Assembly: GCF_032116555.1 (NCBI RefSeq)
Contig: NZ_CP134949.1
Coordinates: 2,666,001 to 2,730,000, forward strand
DNA length: 64,000 nucleotides
Source of the DNA: Halobaculum sp. XH14
GTDB lineage: Archaea > Halobacteriota > Halobacteria > Halobacteriales > Haloferacaceae
Direction: 5' to 3'
Positions 55,470 to 64,000 of the stretch are shown piece after piece (positions within the stretch are counted from its first letter, which is position 1; each line of letters begins with the position of its first letter). The notes under the pieces were generated by a model that made no database searches, was not told the origin of the DNA, and was given only the letters and a program-made list of their open reading frames with translations. Made by a program: the position numbers and the translations under genes.

Positions 55470-56627
55470 TCAGATCTTTCCTTCGGCCCAAGCAACTGTG
55501 ATTTTATTTTCCTGTGATTTTGCAGCATCATCGAGGATACGACTACACATAGATAGGACCTGTCGGATATTGCCCTGTGATGTTTGGAGAATCAAATCTA
55601 AGGCCTCCTCAGAGAATGGGTCTATCCCCTCATTTTCAGTAGAAGACACCCTCTCTTGATCTAAATAATCACGCACCAACTCATAGAGGTTCTCACTTGT
55701 GAGGGGTTTCAGGGCAACTTCTTCCCCAATTCGCTCACTGAACGCGTGGTACTCACTCATTACGTCTTGCCAGACCTCGGGAGCACAACCAAACAGCATG
55801 CATAGTCCCGAACTGTTCTGGTCCATCAAGTGCCGAATGCTGTTGAGTGTTGCCTGTTCGTCCTTAGGTGAGAGTCGTGCGATGCTCTCGAACTCGTCGA
55901 CGAAGACGAAAATACCGGTGTAGCCGAGTTCGAGGAGCATATTTTTGAGTGCGGTGAAGGCCCGAACACCCATCGTGTCGTCGTCGAGTGCGCTGTGGAT
56001 TTCCATCTCCTTCCGCTGCTCGTATCGAATCCCCTCTGCGGTGAGCCACTGCCACGCGTAGAGATTCGTGTCCTCGTACACCATGTGGATAATGGCACGC
56101 GCAAAGTCGGCGAACTTCGTCACATCGCTGAGGCGGCGAATCGACTCGGGGACAATTTCCGAGAGCAGCACATCGCCTTCGTCTATCAGCGATTCCATCC
56201 CACTGGCACCAATCGGGTTCGTGTCGGTGACATCTCTCGCCACAGATGCAAGGAACTCGTACGCGAGTTCTTGGAGTCGGTTGAAGCCCAGATCGTAGAC
56301 GAACTCGTGGTAGATGTCGAGGAATCCTTCACCAGGTTGGGCGACATAGCCCACGACGACGTCGTCGCGACCGCGGAGTAGCGAGCGCGTGTATTTGAGC
56401 GTATGAGACTTCCCATTTCCATACTTTCCGGTGACCACCAGATGCTTCGACTTCCCAGTAGACAACATCGACGAAACCGTGGAGCTGATCTTGTCCGAAA
56501 CGTGCTGCTGCCCACAGTAAATCTCGGGGTCTTCAGCTGGAACTGGACTGTATGGGAAGGGGTTCGCCTCTAGGTCGTACTGTGAGTAGTCTTGCTGTTC
56601 GTCGGTGATCGTGAATGCGTCGGACAT
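55470..56627 (-). CDS. P-loop ATPase of the Dpd-like island (BrxD/DUF2791-like)
   Basis: 385 residues. The AAA+ type core has Walker A GKYGNGKS (residues 67-74), Walker B GIFVFVDEFESIA (about 240-252) and a sensor-like LCMLFGCAPEVW. The C-terminal part (ALDLILQTSQGNIRQVLSMC) resembles the lid of Orc/Cdc6-like and BREX BrxD-like ATPases. Known Dpd clusters also contain an ATPase (DpdH), but identity to it cannot be judged here. It overlaps the upstream winged-helix gene by one base (TAATG). It is the last gene of a three-gene operon with a TGT-like enzyme, which suggests DNA sensing or remodelling in modification or restriction. Confidence 0.75.
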   Translation of the reverse strand: MSDAFTITDEQQDYSQYDLEANPFPYSPVPAEDPEIYCGQQHVSDKISSTVSSMLSTGKSKHLVVTGKYGNGKSHTLKYTRSLLRGRDDVVVGYVAQPGEGFLDIYHEFVYDLGFNRLQELAYEFLASVARDVTDTNPIGASGMESLIDEGDVLLSEIVPESIRRLSDVTKFADFARAIIHMVYEDTNLYAWQWLTAEGIRYEQRKEMEIHSALDDDTMGVRAFTALKNMLLELGYTGIFVFVDEFESIARLSPKDEQATLNSIRHLMDQNSSGLCMLFGCAPEVWQDVMSEYHAFSERIGEEVALKPLTSENLYELVRDYLDQERVSSTENEGIDPFSEEALDLILQTSQGNIRQVLSMCSRILDDAAKSQENKITVAWAEGKI

Positions 56628-57523
56628 TATGTAGCCTCCTGCGAGTATTCGATGTCGCGGTCATGCACCGCGAGGTAGTAGTATTTCTTATCGAACTGTT
56701 CAACGCCGGCCATGACCTGCTGAGTGGACTGAGATGTGCTAACTAAACCGTCCTCTTCGGAGAGCGCAATACGCTTGATGCCGAGTGCTGCATCCTTCGC
56801 AGCTGTATCCATCGGCGCTCCCGACAGCTCGAGTTTACCGACGTTCTGTCGGCAAAGCGAGAGCAGCGCTGCGTCGAAATCATCGCGAGTGCAGCCGAGT
56901 CGTTCACAGGTCTCCTCACGGAGACGTGGAATCGACAGGTAGCGCTGTCGGAGGTCAACACCTGCTCTCTCTTCAAGATCGTCGTGCACGTCCAAAAGCA
57001 GGTAGTGGAAGTTAGCGGATATCGCCGCCTGGTCTACCAAGTAGTAGTCACCTGTGAACGCGTTCCGTTGGACTCGGCCCAACCGCTCAGCCCAATCCCC
57101 GAGGACCTCCACACTCGTTTGGTTATACGAATATGGGCTGAACTCTTGTGCCTCTTCCAATTGAGTCAGGAGTGTGTCTAAACCAGCGTTTTCGACGTTT
57201 TCGAGAACCTCGATGAGTGTCCCGTAGTGGGGACTACGTGTCTCTAAGATTGTACTTACTTGACTCCAGTCCTCGTCGCGAATTGCACTAAGGAAGGACA
57301 AACCGACATCAGTCGTCGTATAGACTGGTTCCTCGCCAGAGTCATTTTCGTCGAGCAAGGAGATACGCTTTGCTTCGAGGATTGTTTCACGCGCACGGCG
57401 GTGACTTACCTCCAATTCGTCCTCAAGATCTTCAGTTGACTTGCTAACTGCTTCACAGGCATGAGTCAGTTCAGCCAACCGGCTGAGAGTGACTGGTCTT
57501 ACAGTTGGTCTCTCATCGCTCAT
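56627..57523 (-). CDS. Winged-helix protein coupled to TGT-like enzyme and ATPase
   Basis: 298 residues. The N-terminus has a winged helix (RLAELTHACEAVSKSTEDLE, then VSHRRARETILEAKRISLLD). The C-terminal part may hold a second winged helix (IPRLREETCERLGCTRDDFD, ALLSLCRQNVGKLELSG). There is no catalytic motif. Both ends overlap neighbours (ATGA with the TGT-like gene, TAATG with the ATPase), so all three are made in fixed proportion. It may be the DNA-recognition subunit; a DpdG-like role is possible. Confidence 0.65.
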   Translation of the reverse strand: MSDERPTVRPVTLSRLAELTHACEAVSKSTEDLEDELEVSHRRARETILEAKRISLLDENDSGEEPVYTTTDVGLSFLSAIRDEDWSQVSTILETRSPHYGTLIEVLENVENAGLDTLLTQLEEAQEFSPYSYNQTSVEVLGDWAERLGRVQRNAFTGDYYLVDQAAISANFHYLLLDVHDDLEERAGVDLRQRYLSIPRLREETCERLGCTRDDFDAALLSLCRQNVGKLELSGAPMDTAAKDAALGIKRIALSEEDGLVSTSQSTQQVMAGVEQFDKKYYYLAVHDRDIEYSQEAT

Positions 57524-58554
57524 GTGAGCCTCCTCATCTGTTGCTTCGCGGTTTCGTATGCCCGCTTAGTGACCTCGTTCCCGCTGAAGCGCAAGTCGAG
57601 GTACTCCTCAATATCTCGACCAGACTCGGCGACATAACGGAAGCGTCGCAGTTCGGTCGCAAGTGCCCAGAGATTATGCTGGGTCAGGGCAGTTCGGTCT
57701 TCGCGAATCTCGTCGAGTTCTTTTTGTCCACACACTGGGCAGGGACAGGGGAGCCTGTCTAATTCCTCGATATTCCGTATTTCTTCCCCGCCGAAGCCCG
57801 GAATCAGGTAGTTCCGGTTGCCTGCACTACGAATGAAGGCCGAAGAGTCGAAACTGTCGACCCCCAAGTAAAGCAGCAGTGGTTGATAGACGAGACCTCC
57901 GAGACCATACACGTGCAGGTGCTTGTCTGTCGCGTTTCGTGCAGATAGTATCAGTTTTGTTATTTTTTTATAATCGGTTCGTATAGGAACCATACTTCCG
58001 AGGGCATACCCATCGAATTCGCCGTTCTTCTCCAGGTATTGTATGTTATTCCGGATCGTCTCTGGATCGTAACCATGGACACTCGCGAAGAGAAGGCCCA
58101 CCCCATCGTGATGGTCGCTCGCTTTGAGTGCGTACTCGATGCTTTGGTCGATTCGCCGTTGGTTTTCTGCTGCCCGGTTCTCCCTTGAGAGAGGAATGTC
58201 GACTGTACCGAGGATGTCCGCGTCCAATTGACTCTGGGTATCAAGCGTTTTTGCTGGGGTAGTGTCCACTTCTTCGTTGGCGAAATCGAACCCACCACTA
58301 TCCGCGAAAACGATGGTGTCCTCGGGGACGTCCATTTCTTCTCGTAATGTTACACCATTCGATATTCTCTGCCACATTGGGTCCCGGTTGCGGATCGATC
58401 TCGCGTTGATCATCGCTGCCGAGAACTCTGGGATCGTGCCGACGTACGTCGGTGTATTGTCACTCGACCGCTTCCCGATGTTTCTGACGGGAAAGAGAAC
58501 AGGGGTGTCTAATTCTCCTCGCGGGAGGTCGAGTTTCCTGCGTCGATACAACAT
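57520..58554 (-). CDS. Short DpdA-like transglycosylase (TGT fold)
   Basis: 344 residues. The tRNA-guanine transglycosylase barrel is recognisable: FADSGGFDF (Asp85, substrate site), LHVYGLGGLVYQPLL, then LGVDSFDSSAF with Asp236 as candidate nucleophile. The zinc site is complete: CPCPVC (Cys270, 272, 275) and His293. TGT enzymes exchange guanine for a 7-deazaguanine base; DpdA members do so in DNA. It lacks a PUA domain, which archaeal tRNA TGTs normally have. It starts an operon with a winged-helix protein and an ATPase, which also points away from tRNA. The substrate is inferred. Confidence 0.78.
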   Translation of the reverse strand: MLYRRRKLDLPRGELDTPVLFPVRNIGKRSSDNTPTYVGTIPEFSAAMINARSIRNRDPMWQRISNGVTLREEMDVPEDTIVFADSGGFDFANEEVDTTPAKTLDTQSQLDADILGTVDIPLSRENRAAENQRRIDQSIEYALKASDHHDGVGLLFASVHGYDPETIRNNIQYLEKNGEFDGYALGSMVPIRTDYKKITKLILSARNATDKHLHVYGLGGLVYQPLLLYLGVDSFDSSAFIRSAGNRNYLIPGFGGEEIRNIEELDRLPCPCPVCGQKELDEIREDRTALTQHNLWALATELRRFRYVAESGRDIEEYLDLRFSGNEVTKRAYETAKQQMRRLT

Positions 58555-58693: not shown

Positions 58694-61597
58694 TCACTCA
58701 GACTCGAATTCCGTTTGTGGTGGTACTTCCTCTACTCGCTGACATACCTCTTCGATAGTTTCCGGGCGAAGAGTATCGACGGTATCGATGTATCGAGCGA
58801 AGTTCTTCATATAGTGTCCCTTGAGTCCAACAACGATCGTGCTATGTTCTTTTGCGTCCTCTGTCCGGGCGGGGATGGATTCGATATTGTCAAACTGGTC
58901 TTCGACAAGTTCGCGGTTGAACACCACACCAATCTGGTCGGAACGTACCTCCTGAACCATCTCGTCGATGTCGATACTGGTGTAGTAGTCCTTCCCAAGG
59001 GTAAAGAAGACGATATCGTAATCGGCCTCTTGAAGGAGGTTTCGTAGGTCTTCTTGGATGTAGAGCTTCGCAGATCGCTCTCTAATGTCGCTAACGTTCA
59101 TTGAACTGAACGATACCTCGTAGGGTGGGAGATACTCGTCTTCTGCGACAAGGCCAAACCCTGCACTCACGAAGTAACGGTCGACGTCGTGGCCTTGTCG
59201 CAAAAGCCATCTAACTGCACTCTTGACGTGTTTTTGCTGGCGTCCAGTGTACAGGTCGCGTGCCGCAATACCTGGCACATTATCACGAGCGAGGAGGTCT
59301 TCACGAGAGAACTGAAGAGTTTCCTCTTCACCGAAAATGGGTGCGTCGTCTGGTATCTCCTTTGATCCTGAACACTGGTCGATGACAAGGATGTCCAATC
59401 CGTTCTCGGTATCGATCTTAGGTGGATGAGGCACGAAGTTATCACTGGCTGCATAGTTCTGCCCGCAGACCTCGAGTATTTCATCTCGCAAGTCTCGGGG
59501 GTTGCTATTGATGTGAACCTCGCAACCGTTTTCACGAGCAACCGCTACAACTTCTTCGTCAAGTTCACCATCAAATGTGTGCACGAAGAGGTGTTTGTAC
59601 CTCGCTGCTTGTTCGCCGACGTTTGCTGCCATACGATCTGGGGCGAACGAGACGAGCGACGGGGTTTCTTCCCACCACTCACTCACCCCGTTCGCATCTA
59701 GTACACCAATCTCTGCGACCGGAAGGTCGTGTGTCTGGCCCCAGAACGAGGAGTGTTTGTCGCGCAGATAGTCTTCAACAGTTTCGTAGCCACTGAGGGC
59801 CGCATCACCCTGGGTCGCGACGAGGATCTTCGGAAGATCTTCCTCGAATTCATCATAGAAGCGTCGTGTGTTGTGGAACCCTCGTCTCCGATTCCGATCG
59901 TTCCCCCGGAAGATGCAAACCTCGATACCGTACTCTCTACAAATTGGACAGTCACATTTCTCCCACGGACGACTTCGAAGGGTGTCTTGATACTCCTGGA
60001 GCAGGTCGTCGTCACCGATCCAAGCGGCGTAATCCCGGACAATCGCCCAGACTCGATCATAGTCACTGACAACGTACGGCTCGTCCAAAACGGTCTTCGC
60101 GTGTGGGAACCCCTCAAATACGTCTTCCGCCGTACTCAGCAGTTCGTCGTACTCCTCGAACGAGACGGGAGCAGTCGGGGCATCTTCCCGCAGGAGTTTG
60201 ACTAGCCTACTACGGAGATTATCACTGAAGCTCGCCTGAAGCTCGCGTCCATACTCGAAATCCGTTCGGAACGCTCTTTCTATGTCCTGTAGGAGCGACT
60301 CATCATACTGATCATCGTAGCGGTGTTCCAGTAGATATTCTCTCGTCGCTGGTAGCACCTTCTCAGCCCGCTTGTACCAACTCTCGAGAGAATTACGAAT
60401 CGAATCTCCTGTATCGTATGCTCGGAGTGCCACCAGTGTTTCACGACCGCGTAAAGACTTTTCAACAGCTTCGTCGAGATCGTCCCGGCTCGATGGGTAG
60501 CGAACTCGAATAGCATCGTAGCGTTCGTCGTTATCAAGACGATAATTCTGTCCACCTGTCCACGCCGAACGGAGCATACTCGCGCTGTCGAAACTGGTCA
60601 TCCCCGACCGACCGATCGTCTCGAACGCCTCAGTCTTCGCGAAGCCGAAGACGTGGGAGTCGATACGGGTGTTGTGTTCCCGTTCGAACTGCTTGATTGT
60701 CTTCCCGACCCTTTTGACGATCCCACGGACGTCGTGAGTTGGACTGCCTGCAACGCCCCCGATTCCGAGGTAGTCGTAGCCAATATCAAGCACTTCCTCG
60801 GTGGCCTTACTGTATGAGTCAGGGTTCCATCCTTGGATGGCGACCATCAGTCGAAACGGGTAGTCACGACGCTGGTAGAGGTCATACATCTCTCGGGCGT
60901 TCCGCAGCGTCAGGTCGTAGCGGAACTCGGCGTCGTGTTCGCGATAGACCGCACGTGAATCCTGTGCGAGATGGAACAGAACGGTATCAATGTCTCCCCG
61001 AAAGTCCTCAGCGATGAACGGTTCAACTTCTGTGTCGGGATCAGTACGAATCGTCGGCTCGTACTCGTCGACATATGAGGGCCATTCCTCTGGCCATTCC
61101 TCGATCATAACATCAACGACGTCGGTGATGGGATCGGGGATGTCGCCTTTGTTGAGCTCCTCGTCGAACGCCCGTTCGTCAAGATAGAGTCGTCCCTTGT
61201 CCTTTCCCGACCCTAGAACGAGGTGGTCGATAGTGACGCCAACAGTAACGTCCAGCGTCTCGTAGAAGTCAAGCATATCCTCGTTCCCGTACGGTGGGAA
61301 CGGGAGCGACTTGTACCCCCAAGCGCCGCAGTCACTGATCGTCGGCAACCAATTCGGGATAGAAAGAACGGGGTCATCGTAGACACCATACTGGGCGAGT
61401 CGCTCGGCTTTGCGGTTTGTCTCTTCGACCTGTTCGCGGGAGATTAGAACCCCGTCTACTGGTGTGGTTTCGGGCTCGAAAATGTCCCAAATATAATCCA
61501 AATCGCGCTCTTGACGGTTCAGGGTAGAGAATTCGTCGTGTTCGAAATCGTAGTGAGAGTCGACTGCGTCGTCCCACTCAGGTACGTAAAACCGCAC
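58694..61597 (-). CDS. Large DpdA-like transglycosylase fused to a DUF6884-like domain
   Basis: 967 residues from GTG 61597. An N-terminal TGT-like barrel has ISDCGAWGY (Asp89), LGIGGVAGSP and MTSFDSASML (Asp337, candidate nucleophile). A zinc site follows as CDCPIC (548-553) with His575. An unassigned region (about 585-720) leads to a C-terminal DUF6884-like domain (about 734-900): LVIDQCSGSKE, AARDLYTGRQQKHV and YFVSAGFGLVAEDEYLPPYE. It resembles DpdA enzymes that put preQ0 into DNA. The second domain could change the inserted base, as the CSxxK region recalls archaeosine synthase; that is inference. A minus-strand atttatagg box lies about 40 bases upstream. Confidence 0.78.
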   Translation of the reverse strand: MRFYVPEWDDAVDSHYDFEHDEFSTLNRQERDLDYIWDIFEPETTPVDGVLISREQVEETNRKAERLAQYGVYDDPVLSIPNWLPTISDCGAWGYKSLPFPPYGNEDMLDFYETLDVTVGVTIDHLVLGSGKDKGRLYLDERAFDEELNKGDIPDPITDVVDVMIEEWPEEWPSYVDEYEPTIRTDPDTEVEPFIAEDFRGDIDTVLFHLAQDSRAVYREHDAEFRYDLTLRNAREMYDLYQRRDYPFRLMVAIQGWNPDSYSKATEEVLDIGYDYLGIGGVAGSPTHDVRGIVKRVGKTIKQFEREHNTRIDSHVFGFAKTEAFETIGRSGMTSFDSASMLRSAWTGGQNYRLDNDERYDAIRVRYPSSRDDLDEAVEKSLRGRETLVALRAYDTGDSIRNSLESWYKRAEKVLPATREYLLEHRYDDQYDESLLQDIERAFRTDFEYGRELQASFSDNLRSRLVKLLREDAPTAPVSFEEYDELLSTAEDVFEGFPHAKTVLDEPYVVSDYDRVWAIVRDYAAWIGDDDLLQEYQDTLRSRPWEKCDCPICREYGIEVCIFRGNDRNRRRGFHNTRRFYDEFEEDLPKILVATQGDAALSGYETVEDYLRDKHSSFWGQTHDLPVAEIGVLDANGVSEWWEETPSLVSFAPDRMAANVGEQAARYKHLFVHTFDGELDEEVVAVARENGCEVHINSNPRDLRDEILEVCGQNYAASDNFVPHPPKIDTENGLDILVIDQCSGSKEIPDDAPIFGEEETLQFSREDLLARDNVPGIAARDLYTGRQQKHVKSAVRWLLRQGHDVDRYFVSAGFGLVAEDEYLPPYEVSFSSMNVSDIRERSAKLYIQEDLRNLLQEADYDIVFFTLGKDYYTSIDIDEMVQEVRSDQIGVVFNRELVEDQFDNIESIPARTEDAKEHSTIVVGLKGHYMKNFARYIDTVDTLRPETIEEVCQRVEEVPPQTEFESE

Positions 61598-61677: not shown

Positions 61678-62349
61678 CTAATGGAAATCAGATAGTGTAG
61701 GGCCAGTGTGAATCTGTATCGAATCCCACTGGTCAGGGCACTCTGCTTCAACTTGCTCAAAAAAACCGTCACCAATAGCGGTCAATACGTAATTGTTCGA
61801 CCGAATCTTCGCGAACTCTAAGTGGACTAACCACTTATAGTGTACTTTAGCACGCGGCACCCACGAGCTATCACTATCGACATCGGGGTAGAGATGGCCG
61901 ATTCGCTCACCGAATCTCTGTGCCGCTGGTGAGTCTTGAGTTGTCGGAACGGTCTCAACTGTAAGTTGGTGGAGAGCTGCCAACATTGGCAAACGGTGCT
62001 CATAAAAAATAACCATCCAGAGAAGGGCCTGTTCGGTACACGATAGCGAATCTTTCACTCCGACGCCTAACTTTGCTCCTGAATGACTCTGCTGCCGTGC
62101 ACGTTCATACGCTTCGGTCAGCCATCGCCCTCTTTCAGTTAGTTCGCCTTCATCCAGAAGGTCAAGCAGTTCCAAGAGTCGAGTCACATGCTGAACTTTT
62201 CTTGACCCAACGACACCTCTGTTGAAGGCTAATGTCCGCAGATCGGCATTCGGCTCACGCCGTCGCAACTCAAGCAATTCGCAAGCTAGCGGAAGGTCGT
62301 CCCAATCCGGCTGAACCGTCTCGAGGTGCCTGACTGACGACGTTTCCAC
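61678..62349 (-). CDS. Hypothetical protein of the Dpd-like island
   Basis: 223 residues with GTG start at 62349. It is mostly helical and contains a winged-helix-like segment (VTRLLELLDLLDEGELTERG, RWLTEAYERA) and a second one near the end (HYKWLVHLEFAKIRSNNYVL). No catalytic motif is visible. It is divergent from queD with 108 bases between the starts, so both may share control. A role as a specificity or regulatory protein is possible; I do not recognise its family. Confidence 0.6.
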   Translation of the reverse strand: METSSVRHLETVQPDWDDLPLACELLELRRREPNADLRTLAFNRGVVGSRKVQHVTRLLELLDLLDEGELTERGRWLTEAYERARQQSHSGAKLGVGVKDSLSCTEQALLWMVIFYEHRLPMLAALHQLTVETVPTTQDSPAAQRFGERIGHLYPDVDSDSSWVPRAKVHYKWLVHLEFAKIRSNNYVLTAIGDGFFEQVEAECPDQWDSIQIHTGPTLSDFH

Positions 62350-62457: not shown

Positions 62458-62913
62458 GTGCATCTTGAACAAGAATCGGTCCCTGATCTTACTGAGTCTG
62501 GTAAGAGAACACTATTCGTAGGAAAGGACAACCCGATCCGAATCAGCACCGGGCATCGCCTCCTCCACCATGATGGGAAATGTAGCCGTCCACACGGCCA
62601 CAACTATGAGATCTCGGTTGAGGTCACCGGATCTCTCACTCAAGATGGCTGGGTTGTAGACAAAGGAGATATTACCTCAGTAATAGATGACTGGGACCAC
62701 CGCTTCCTCCTCGAGAAGGACGACCCGCTCATCGACGCCTTCGAACAGAGCGGCGACGGTGATTCACTCGTCGTTCTTGAACACCCACCGACCGCGGAAG
62801 TGATGGGGCTCGTCTTGGAACAAAAACTCCTCGAGACACTCCCAGAGTCACTCTCAGACATCTCAGTGACGGTGCGGGAGACATCAGAGCTCTGTGCGGG
62901 GGCGACGCACTGA
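62458..62913 (+). CDS. queD: 6-carboxytetrahydropterin synthase QueD
   Basis: 151 residues with GTG start at 62458. Zinc and catalytic residues are present: ISTGHRLLHH, KCSRPHGHNYE (Cys and His-x-His), and DDWDHRFLLEKDD with the catalytic Asp-His pair; VRETSELCAG ends the active site. It converts dihydroneopterin triphosphate to 6-carboxytetrahydropterin, the second step to preQ0. Its stop overlaps the queE start (TGATG). Being in the Dpd-like island, it probably supplies preQ0 for DNA, perhaps also for tRNA archaeosine. Confidence 0.92.
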   Translation: MHLEQESVPDLTESGKRTLFVGKDNPIRISTGHRLLHHDGKCSRPHGHNYEISVEVTGSLTQDGWVVDKGDITSVIDDWDHRFLLEKDDPLIDAFEQSGDGDSLVVLEHPPTAEVMGLVLEQKLLETLPESLSDISVTVRETSELCAGATH

Positions 62914-63686
62914 TGCCAGTCAGTTCGACAGCTGATGAGCAGCCAACGGACGATGTCGATGGCGCGGCGCTGCCGGTCAACGAGCTCTTCTACTCGCTCC
63001 AGGGCGAGGGCAAACTCACCGGGACACCGTCGGTGTTCGTCCGAACGAGTGGCTGTAACCTCCGATGTTGGTTCTGTGACTCCTACCACACCTCATGGGA
63101 ACCGACCCACGCTACCATAAGCGTCGACGACATCGTCAAGGAGGTCCAGTCACACGACGACGCCGACCACGTCGTCCTCACTGGTGGCGAACCGCTCATC
63201 CATGACGATTCGGTCACCCTCCTGAAACACCTTGATGATCTCGGGTACCACACCACCGTCGAAACCAACGGCACCATCTACCGCGACGCCCCCATCGATC
63301 TGGCGAGTATCAGTCCGAAACTCGCCACCAGCACACCCACCACCGAGAAAGACCCCAAGGGCGATGGCGAGTGGGTGGACCGCCATGAGGACCGTCGTAT
63401 CGACCTCAACACGCTGAGCGCGCTCGTCGACGACTACGGTGCACAACTCAAGTTCGTCGTCACTGGCCACGACGATCTGCCCGAGATCGAATCCCTCCTC
63501 GCCGACGTCCGCTCGAAAGCGGCGAGTCACATCCCTGACTCCGACGTGTTGTTGATGCCGGAGGGAACGACTCGGGACGAACTCGACGCTCGCCGGAACG
63601 AGGTCGCCGACCTCGCGATGGAGTACGGCTACCGATACACGCCCCGCTTGCACGTCGACTTGTGGAACGACGCTCCCGAAACGTAA
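62913..63686 (+). CDS. queE: 7-carboxy-7-deazaguanine synthase QueE
   Basis: 257 residues. The radical SAM motif is SGCNLRCWFCDSYH (CX3CX2C, about residue 49-56), preceded by NELFYSLQGEGKLTGTP, the QueE start signature. HVVLTGGEPLIH is the SAM-binding GGE motif. It converts 6-carboxytetrahydropterin to 7-carboxy-7-deazaguanine. It is translated with queD (one-base overlap) and is followed after one base by folE. QueC, the next enzyme, is not in the window. Confidence 0.94.
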   Translation: MPVSSTADEQPTDDVDGAALPVNELFYSLQGEGKLTGTPSVFVRTSGCNLRCWFCDSYHTSWEPTHATISVDDIVKEVQSHDDADHVVLTGGEPLIHDDSVTLLKHLDDLGYHTTVETNGTIYRDAPIDLASISPKLATSTPTTEKDPKGDGEWVDRHEDRRIDLNTLSALVDDYGAQLKFVVTGHDDLPEIESLLADVRSKAASHIPDSDVLLMPEGTTRDELDARRNEVADLAMEYGYRYTPRLHVDLWNDAPET

Positions 63687-63687
63687 T

Positions 63688-64000
63688 ATGACGAGTACGC
63701 ATTCCCAATTCGCAACTGATGAGGTGGAATCAGACATCGACTACGAGAAGGCCCAGCGCGGCGTTCGCCTCCTGTTAGAGGCTGTCGGCGAGGACCCGGA
63801 CAGTGACGCGCTCGCGGAGACCTGCCAGCGGCGCGTTCCGGACACATTCGCGACACTCACTGAAGGTCAACGGGAGGCCGCGAAGCCGACGATGCGGACC
63901 TTCGACGCCGAGACAACCGACCTCGTCGTGAAAACCGGCATTCCCGTATACTCGCTGTGTGAACACCACTTGCTGCCGTTCTTTGGAACAGTCCATCTCG
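63688..64000 (+). CDS. folE: GTP cyclohydrolase I FolE, bacterial type (cut by window end)
   Basis: The first 104 residues are visible. IDYEKAQRGVRLLLEAVGED is the N-terminal helix region of type IA enzymes, and VYSLCEHHLLPFFGTVHL contains the zinc and catalytic Cys-His-His motif. It opens the GTP ring to make dihydroneopterin triphosphate for QueD. Most archaea use the unrelated MptA (type IB), so a FolE1 in this operon points to horizontal origin and a dedicated function. It begins one base after the queE stop. Confidence 0.92.
   Translation, partial: MTSTHSQFATDEVESDIDYEKAQRGVRLLLEAVGEDPDSDALAETCQRRVPDTFATLTEGQREAAKPTMRTFDAETTDLVVKTGIPVYSLCEHHLLPFFGTVHL

What the first reader, a model, noticed from the sequence alone, without database searches (positions are those of the whole stretch)
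58694..61597. TGT-like enzyme fused to a DUF6884-like domain
The protein has a TGT barrel with both aspartates and a zinc site, then about 150 residues of unassigned sequence, then a DUF6884-like module with QCSGSK and DLYTG motifs. The CSxxK stretch is reminiscent of the lysine-bearing motif of archaeosine synthase ArcS. A single polypeptide might insert preQ0 into DNA and then modify it.
Basis: partly seen in the sequence, partly recalled or inferred. Interest (0 to 1): 0.8.

Follow-up and report, generated by a model that had tools for sequence, protein, structure and literature searches.

The report
Fused preQ0 DNA-modification enzyme, haloarchaea
A salt-loving archaeon carries one protein that joins DpdA, the enzyme that swaps guanine in DNA for the modified base preQ0, to a relative of DpdC, the enzyme that finishes that modification, inside an anti-virus gene island with a second DpdA-like enzyme that nearly always comes with it.

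Summary
The ORF is real (58694-61597, minus strand, 967 aa). Residues 1-588 are a DpdA-type DNA transglycosylase with both catalytic Asp (D89, D337) and the zinc site. Residues 723-967 are a DpdC/DUF6884 domain with the C-x3-K motif of bacterial DpdC. The roughly 135 residues between are an alpha/beta extension of haloarchaeal DpdA, not a linker. Of 391 Halobacteria genomes, 56 have this DpdA: 31 fused, 25 not (nearly all as adjacent DpdA and DpdC genes). Cyanobacteria and Paenibacillus fuse the domains in opposite order. The fusion sits with a second, catalytically intact TGT, a tandem winged-helix protein and a BrxD-like ATPase; DpdA and TGT2 co-occur in 55 genomes. PreQ0 genes lie alongside; a PglZ/helicase module follows. 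DpdB, DpdA's usual partner, is absent, and in 18 loci DpdB and the second TGT never occur together. Best reading: a haloarchaeal Dpd-type restriction-modification system in which one polypeptide inserts preQ0 into DNA and hydrates it to ADG. Haloarchaeal Dpd-like systems (BRIGADE) and a host DpdA in Haloarcula vallismortis, very probably this fusion, are already reported. The fusion and the TGT2/DpdB exchange are not described in texts I could read. No activity was tested.

The parts
58694..61597 (-). DpdA-DpdC fusion protein, 967 aa (GTG start)
59834..61597 (-). DpdA (DNA-guanine transglycosylase) region, residues 1-588, with haloarchaeal insertions at about residues 136-220 and 398-528 relative to bacterial DpdA
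   Evidence: NF041059 281 bits; PADLOC DpdA 2.2e-75; PDB 7ui4 E 5e-51 by profile, Foldseek 1.8e-9
60587..60589 (-). D337, predicted TGT nucleophile (SFDSAS)
   Evidence: invariant in 28 of 28 DpdA rows; aligned with SIDST of 7ui4
61331..61333 (-). D89, second catalytic aspartate (SDCGAW)
   Evidence: invariant; aligned with GDCGAF of 7ui4
59873..59956 (-). Zinc site C548/C550/C553/H575
   Evidence: invariant; DpdA/TGT zinc motif aligned with 7ui4
59432..59833 (-). alpha/beta extension of haloarchaeal DpdA, residues 589-722 (present in split DpdA too)
58697..59431 (-). DpdC/DUF6884 domain, residues 723-967
   Evidence: PF21818 30.7 bits; PADLOC DpdC 1.9e-6; hhalign against bacterial DpdC 96%; separate adjacent gene in about 24 genomes
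59360..59374 (-). C742-x3-K746 motif of DpdC, candidate catalytic residues
   Evidence: invariant in haloarchaeal rows; also in Agrobacterium, Enterobacter (CTNGK) and Caulobacter (CAQQK) DpdC once their short annotated starts are extended
57520..58554 (-). TGT2: second TGT, 344 aa, catalytic domain only, D85/D236 and C270/C272/C275/H293 intact
   Evidence: PF01702 5.6e-26; nearest PDB sequence ArcTGT 1iq8; co-occurrence; residues
56627..57523 (-). ORF3, 298 aa, predicted tandem winged-helix DNA-binding protein; overlaps TGT2 by 4 bases
   Evidence: AlphaFold model, mean pLDDT 76.5; winged-helix matches, all weak; co-occurrence
55470..56627 (-). BrxC/BrxD-like AAA ATPase, 385 aa, overlaps ORF3 by 1 base
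   Evidence: PF10923 1.8e-16; BrxD 4e-12
62458..62913 (+). QueD (preQ0 biosynthesis)
   Evidence: PF01242 1.1e-19; TIGR03367 1.1e-19, below its cut-off
62913..63686 (+). QueE (preQ0 biosynthesis)
   Evidence: QueE models to 3e-27, below their cut-offs
63688..64000 (+). Start of FolE; FolE and QueC continue beyond the window (genome C1:2729688-2730988), followed by a PglZ/ATPase/YprA-type helicase module
61678..62349 (-). 223-aa conserved protein of unknown function (winged-helix nature only guessed) between fusion and queD; membership uncertain
   Evidence: kept next to the fusion in the nearest relatives; no family match

Best explanation
This is the modification enzyme of a haloarchaeal Dpd-type (7-deazaguanine) restriction-modification island. 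The N-terminal DpdA part uses a TGT mechanism: D337 attacks the deoxyribose C1' of a target dG, guanine leaves, and preQ0 made by the neighbouring QueD/QueE/FolE/QueC is inserted to give dPreQ0. The tethered DpdC/DUF6884 domain then hydrates the 7-cyano group in place to give dADG, probably through C742 (thioimidate intermediate) and K746. The second TGT, the winged-helix protein ORF3 and the BrxD-like ATPase form the rest of the modification complex and stand in for DpdB, selecting or presenting DNA. The PglZ/ATPase/YprA-type helicase module downstream restricts unmodified DNA. Shown here: domain identities, residues, fusion/split/opposite-order arrangements, strict co-occurrence, absence of DpdB. 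Inferred: DNA as substrate, dADG as product, Cys/Lys catalysis, complex formation, restriction.
For: DpdA equivalog 281 bits against cut-off 200, nearest PDB sequence and fold 7ui4 'DNA preQ0 insertase DpdA'. Both Asp and the Zn site invariant. C-domain: DUF6884 and DpdC models; split-gene homologue scores DpdC 3.7e-13; hhalign to bacterial DpdC 96-98%; shared C-x3-K, LYxG, SAGxGL, PxYxxT blocks. Same two domains fused in reverse order in Nostoc, Picosynechococcus and Paenibacillus and adjacent in about 24 haloarchaeal genomes. preQ0 genes or the preQ0 transporter in most loci. TGT2 co-occurs with DpdA in 55 genomes out of 56 each. No DndB/DpdB family match in the genome. Halovirus HVTV-1 DNA, grown on H. 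vallismortis, contains dADG that the authors could not assign to an enzyme (PMC6884629); the host DpdA contig they name carries a 95%-identical fusion (L071).
Against: No experiment. DUF6884-type homologues also occur in haloarchaea without DpdA, next to another protein, so the domain's chemistry is not fixed by family. DpdC models match only about 105 of their ~312 positions in the fusion. HVTV-1 dADG is scarce and may come from spontaneous oxidation, as its authors note. The model of the TGT part is weak (pTM 0.41), and the C-domain could not be folded and searched alone. One genome (L052, Halorussus salinisoli) has the fusion but no close TGT2.
Confidence: 0.66

Rival explanations
1. DpdA works as stated, but the C-terminal DUF6884 domain is not a nitrile hydratase. 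It binds or senses modified bases or acts as a specificity domain, and the final base is dPreQ0.
For: DUF6884-type proteins also occur alone beside unrelated genes; homology to canonical DpdC is distant (15-17% identity); some bacterial islands carry only dPreQ0 (cited in PMC11888242).
Against: The C-x3-K and SAGxGL motifs are invariant in fused and split haloarchaeal forms, as expected of an active site; repeated pairing with DpdA in three arrangements.
Confidence: 0.2
2. The C-terminal domain is an ArcS-like amidine-forming module, and the product in DNA is deoxyarchaeosine (dG+) or a lysine adduct.
For: Same C-x3-K spacing as ArcS PCSATKPY, co-linear motif blocks in the profile alignment; ArcS also acts on the preQ0 nitrile (PMC11298593).
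Against: Profile match not significant (0.4-20%); the KPYxxSxxH extension is missing; no lysine-cleaving partner gene identified in the cluster.
Confidence: 0.07
3. TGT2 is the real DNA base-exchange enzyme and the fusion is an accessory or modifies a different target such as tRNA.
For: TGT2 keeps both Asp and the Zn site and is closest to ArcTGT.
Against: The fusion is the member that matches DpdA and DNA preQ0 insertase 7ui4; its catalytic residues are invariant; TGT2 has only the catalytic domain (344 aa against 582 in 1iq8), and the genome has its own TgtA and ArcS for tRNA.
Confidence: 0.07

Closest known systems
Bacterial Dpd system (DpdA, DpdB, DpdC plus restriction genes; Salmonella Montevideo)
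   Same: DpdA and DpdC domains, preQ0 genes or transporter next door, helicase-bearing restriction genes
   Different: DpdA and DpdC fused; DpdB absent; second TGT, tandem winged-helix protein and BrxD-like ATPase instead; PglZ-type restriction module
BRIGADE (Bell et al. 2025 preprint, PMC12458937)
   Same: Dpd-like, only in halophilic archaea, deazaguanine gene cluster; loci such as L038 with two YprA-type helicases and a PLD nuclease fit it
   Different: The own locus has one YprA-type helicase (its zinc-binding MZB part in a separate ORF) and PglZ in place of a PLD or PD-(D/E)XK nuclease; the main text names neither DpdA, DpdC nor TGT, so fusion and TGT2 are not described there (supplement not readable)
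Haloarcula vallismortis host DpdA (EMA11768, Hutinet 2019, PMC6884629)
   Same: L071, on the contig they name, is a 95%-identical fusion; very probably the same gene
   Different: Their text calls it a DpdA homologue and leaves the source of dADG to 'another unidentified protein'; the DpdC domain on the same polypeptide is not mentioned
N-terminal DpdC-DpdA proteins of cyanobacteria and Paenibacillus (RefSeq 'DpdA', 689-714 aa)
   Same: Same two domains in one chain; some loci also have a second TGT
   Different: Opposite domain order; some loci use DpdB instead of TGT2
BREX-related capture (BRC) systems (PMC12839542)
   Same: TGT together with BREX-type components
   Different: BRC is defined by HerA/FtsK with optional GNAT and no DpdC; none of these was seen here, and here DpdC is present

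Membership tests
DpdA | Match to the curated DpdA model above cut-off | tested here: met
   NF041059 281.2 bits against 200
DpdA | Catalytic Asp pair and C-x-C-x2-C...H zinc site | tested here: met
   D89, D337, C548/C550/C553/H575 invariant
DpdA | Fold of DNA preQ0 insertase 7ui4 | tested here: met
   Foldseek E 1.8e-9, VIA Z 12.4 but rmsd 14.3, so the model aligns in pieces
DpdA | Inserts preQ0 into DNA | not testable with these tools
   needs LC-MS or an in vitro assay
DpdC | C-x3-K, LYxG, SAGxGL, PxYxxT motif series | tested here: met
DpdC | Profile similarity over the whole of DpdC (~312 positions) | tested here: inconclusive
   positions 7-113 only in the fusion; hhalign covers about 132 columns
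DpdC | dPreQ0 nitrile hydratase activity | not testable with these tools
   needs an enzyme assay
Canonical Dpd system | DpdB (DGQHR/DndB-type) partner | tested here: not met
   PF14072 finds nothing in the genome; none in the haloarchaeal loci tested
Canonical Dpd system | preQ0 supply genes | tested here: met
   QueD, QueE, FolE, QueC adjacent
ArcS | PCx3KPYx2Sx2H core and profile match | tested here: not met
   only C-x3-K shared; profile 0.4-20%
ArcS/DUF6884 common fold | Structural similarity of residues 723-967 to ArcS core | tested here: inconclusive
   TGT hits filled the search of the whole model; folding jobs exhausted
BRIGADE | Haloarchaeal, deazaguanine gene cluster | tested here: met
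BRIGADE | Usually two YprA-like helicases with a PLD or PD-(D/E)XK nuclease | tested here: not met
   own locus C1:2731427-2742624 has PglZ, 342-aa ORF, ATPase, one helicase and an MZB protein; the preprint says 'usually', so this is not exclusive
BRC | HerA/FtsK translocase in the operon | tested here: not met
   no HerA/FtsK match among the island proteins scanned; other island ORFs not scanned

The most novel reading that the evidence does not exclude
There are two exchangeable ways to run a DpdA. One uses DpdB. The other, seen here and in some cyanobacteria and Paenibacillus, uses a second TGT (catalytically intact in haloarchaea) that replaces DpdB, probably by pairing with the DpdA-DpdC fusion to position DNA or to treat both strands. 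In haloarchaea this dual-TGT modification module is mixed with several unrelated restriction modules.
Probability: 0.4. Interest if true: 0.68.

Novelty: new variant of a known kind. Interest (0 to 1): 0.57.

Why it matters
Deazaguanine DNA modification in cellular archaea has been suspected from gene content but no archaeal enzyme has been shown, as far as I could read. This gives a single gene carrying insertion and maturation domains, names likely catalytic residues (D337, C742, K746), and offers a host candidate for the unassigned dADG, and perhaps the base insertion, in halovirus HVTV-1. The exclusion between DpdB and a second TGT suggests what DpdB does and can be tested.

Tried and rejected
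ArcS as the nearest relative of the C-domain: profile comparisons with 15-18 ArcS cores gave 0.4-20% probability. ORF3 or the ATPase as a hidden DpdB, DpdG or DpdH: hhalign found nothing. Viral origin: no relative in IMG/VR by these patterns and only one distant DpdA in phage records. BRC membership: no HerA/FtsK or GNAT match among the proteins scanned. Fold search of the whole fusion model: TGT matches filled the list, so the C-domain fold was not tested. Papers not held: Thiaville 2016, Yuan 2018, Gedara 2023; what I say of DpdB and DpdC biochemistry rests on papers citing them and on general knowledge.

Full report
Observation. The ORF at 58694-61597 (minus strand, 967 aa, GTG) is as described. 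The window is from a haloarchaeal chromosome (G000:C1:2666001-2730000). The island is at 47-57% GC where the first 26 kb of the window run at 69-74%, which fits horizontal acquisition.

N-terminal half. NCBIfam's DpdA equivalog matches at 281 bits against a cut-off of 200, PADLOC DpdA at 2.2e-75, and the only related PDB sequence is 7ui4, the DNA preQ0 insertase DpdA (phmmer 1.3e-40; profile 5e-51; Foldseek 1.8e-9). D89, D337, C548, C550, C553 and H575 are invariant in the 28 DpdA rows of A3. Compared with bacterial DpdA there are two insertions and an alpha/beta extension (residues 589-722) that is also present in the stand-alone DpdA of split loci. The predicted model of the TGT part is poor (pTM 0.41), so identity rests on sequence.

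C-terminal domain. PF21818 DUF6884 matches just above its cut-off and PADLOC's DpdC model at 1.9e-6. The separate-gene form in Natronococcus scores DpdC 3.7e-13. Profile comparison with three bacterial DpdC gives 96-98% probability, while controls give at most about 2%. The conserved series is C-x3-K, LYxG, SAGxGL, PxYxxT. Two bacterial DpdC genes seemed to lack C-x3-K, but in-frame sequence upstream of their annotated starts restores it: CTNGK in Enterobacter, CAQQK in Caulobacter. ArcS has the same spacing (PCSATKPY) and a co-linear but non-significant profile alignment. Both enzymes act on the preQ0 nitrile, so a shared strategy or very remote homology is possible but not shown.

Fusion. 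In 391 Halobacteria genomes, 56 carry this DpdA: 31 with the fused form and 25 without it, most of those with the two genes adjacent (hand count). On a DpdA tree the fused and split labels can each be explained by one change, but the deep branches are weakly supported; near-identical fusions occur in different families, so the island moves. Nostoc, Picosynechococcus and Paenibacillus fuse the same domains in the opposite order. Independent fusions in both orders plus adjacency are a strong argument for a shared pathway.

Neighbours. TGT2, ORF3 and the BrxD-like ATPase follow on the same strand, overlapping by 4 and 1 bases. Across 391 genomes DpdA and TGT2 co-occur in 55, with one exception each way; G167 lies at a contig end. 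ORF3 is found in 55 of the 56 plus three more genomes. The genomes are related, so the Fisher value (6e-65) overstates independence, but TGT2 hits span 37 genera. L052 is an exception with no close TGT2. TGT2 keeps its catalytic and zinc residues and lacks the tRNA-binding part of ArcTGT. ORF3 is predicted as winged-helix repeats (all fold matches weak). The genome has its own TgtA and ArcS elsewhere.

DpdB. No DndB/DpdB family protein was found in the genome. In 18 loci examined, TGT2 is found in 10 (7 haloarchaeal, 3 bacterial) and DpdB in 7, never both; one has neither. Restricted to bacteria this is 3 against 7, a small sample from plasmid records. This suggests that TGT2 with its partners replaces DpdB.

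preQ0 and restriction. QueD and QueE (window) and FolE and QueC (beyond) form a divergent operon; this QueC is the only strong QueC match in the genome, so it may also feed tRNA archaeosine. Beyond it lie a PglZ-like protein, a 342-aa ORF, a 1254-aa ATPase, a YprA/DpdJ/DruE-like helicase and an MZB protein. Other loci carry two large helicases with a PLD nuclease, a PD-(D/E)XK set, or a Csa3-linked set, so the modification module is combined with different restriction modules.

Known or not. BRIGADE (PMC12458937) already names Dpd-like systems exclusive to halophilic archaea; loci such as L038 fit it. Hutinet et al. (PMC6884629) noted a bacterial-type DpdA in H. vallismortis on contig AOLQ01000002 and found 152 dADG per million nucleotides in HVTV-1 DNA, suggesting 'another unidentified protein'. 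Locus L071 on that contig is the fusion at 95% identity. The fused DpdC domain is a candidate for that activity, though the authors also allow spontaneous oxidation. Neither text describes the fusion or the second TGT.

Limits. No activity data, supplements and three primary Dpd papers unread, C-domain fold not searched alone.

Noticed in passing
L080:6169-6891, L082:5955-6725, L083:6633-7355, L084:6501-7391, L086:5897-6676, L087:6259-6981: Stand-alone ~240-aa DpdC/DUF6884 homologues in haloarchaea without this DpdA, each within about 1.3 kb of a ~240-aa protein with a 'GYMDWPDRGVYFFF' motif (no Pfam match for the one scanned); a conserved two-gene pair of unknown function.
   Followed up: partly
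L110:7308-9305, L111:5751-7757, L112:6142-8190: A different haloarchaeal system: TGT fused to an ArcS-like core (665-682 aa, PCSQxKPY motif). In L111, L112 and L113 a ~150-aa DUF6884-like protein, another TGT (413-419 aa) and a GHKL-ATPase-like gene stand together.
   Followed up: partly
L076:17067 and L079:6098: Annotated start codons of DpdC in Enterobacter and Caulobacter plasmid records appear too far downstream and cut off the conserved C-x3-K motif.
   Followed up: yes
L090:7875-11402 and L062:10001-13477: Fusion variants of 1175 and 1158 aa: one has about 200 extra C-terminal residues, the other an insertion near residue 200 that may be an intein.
   Followed up: no
L045:10001-18500: Halorubrum ezzemoulense locus carries a fusion of one lineage next to an inverted TGT2-ORF3-ATPase set and preQ0 genes of another, suggesting recombination between islands.
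   Followed up: no
window 26000-64000: GC content falls from about 71% to 47-64% from about 26 kb onward, marking a long low-GC, probably acquired region that continues beyond the window.
   Followed up: no
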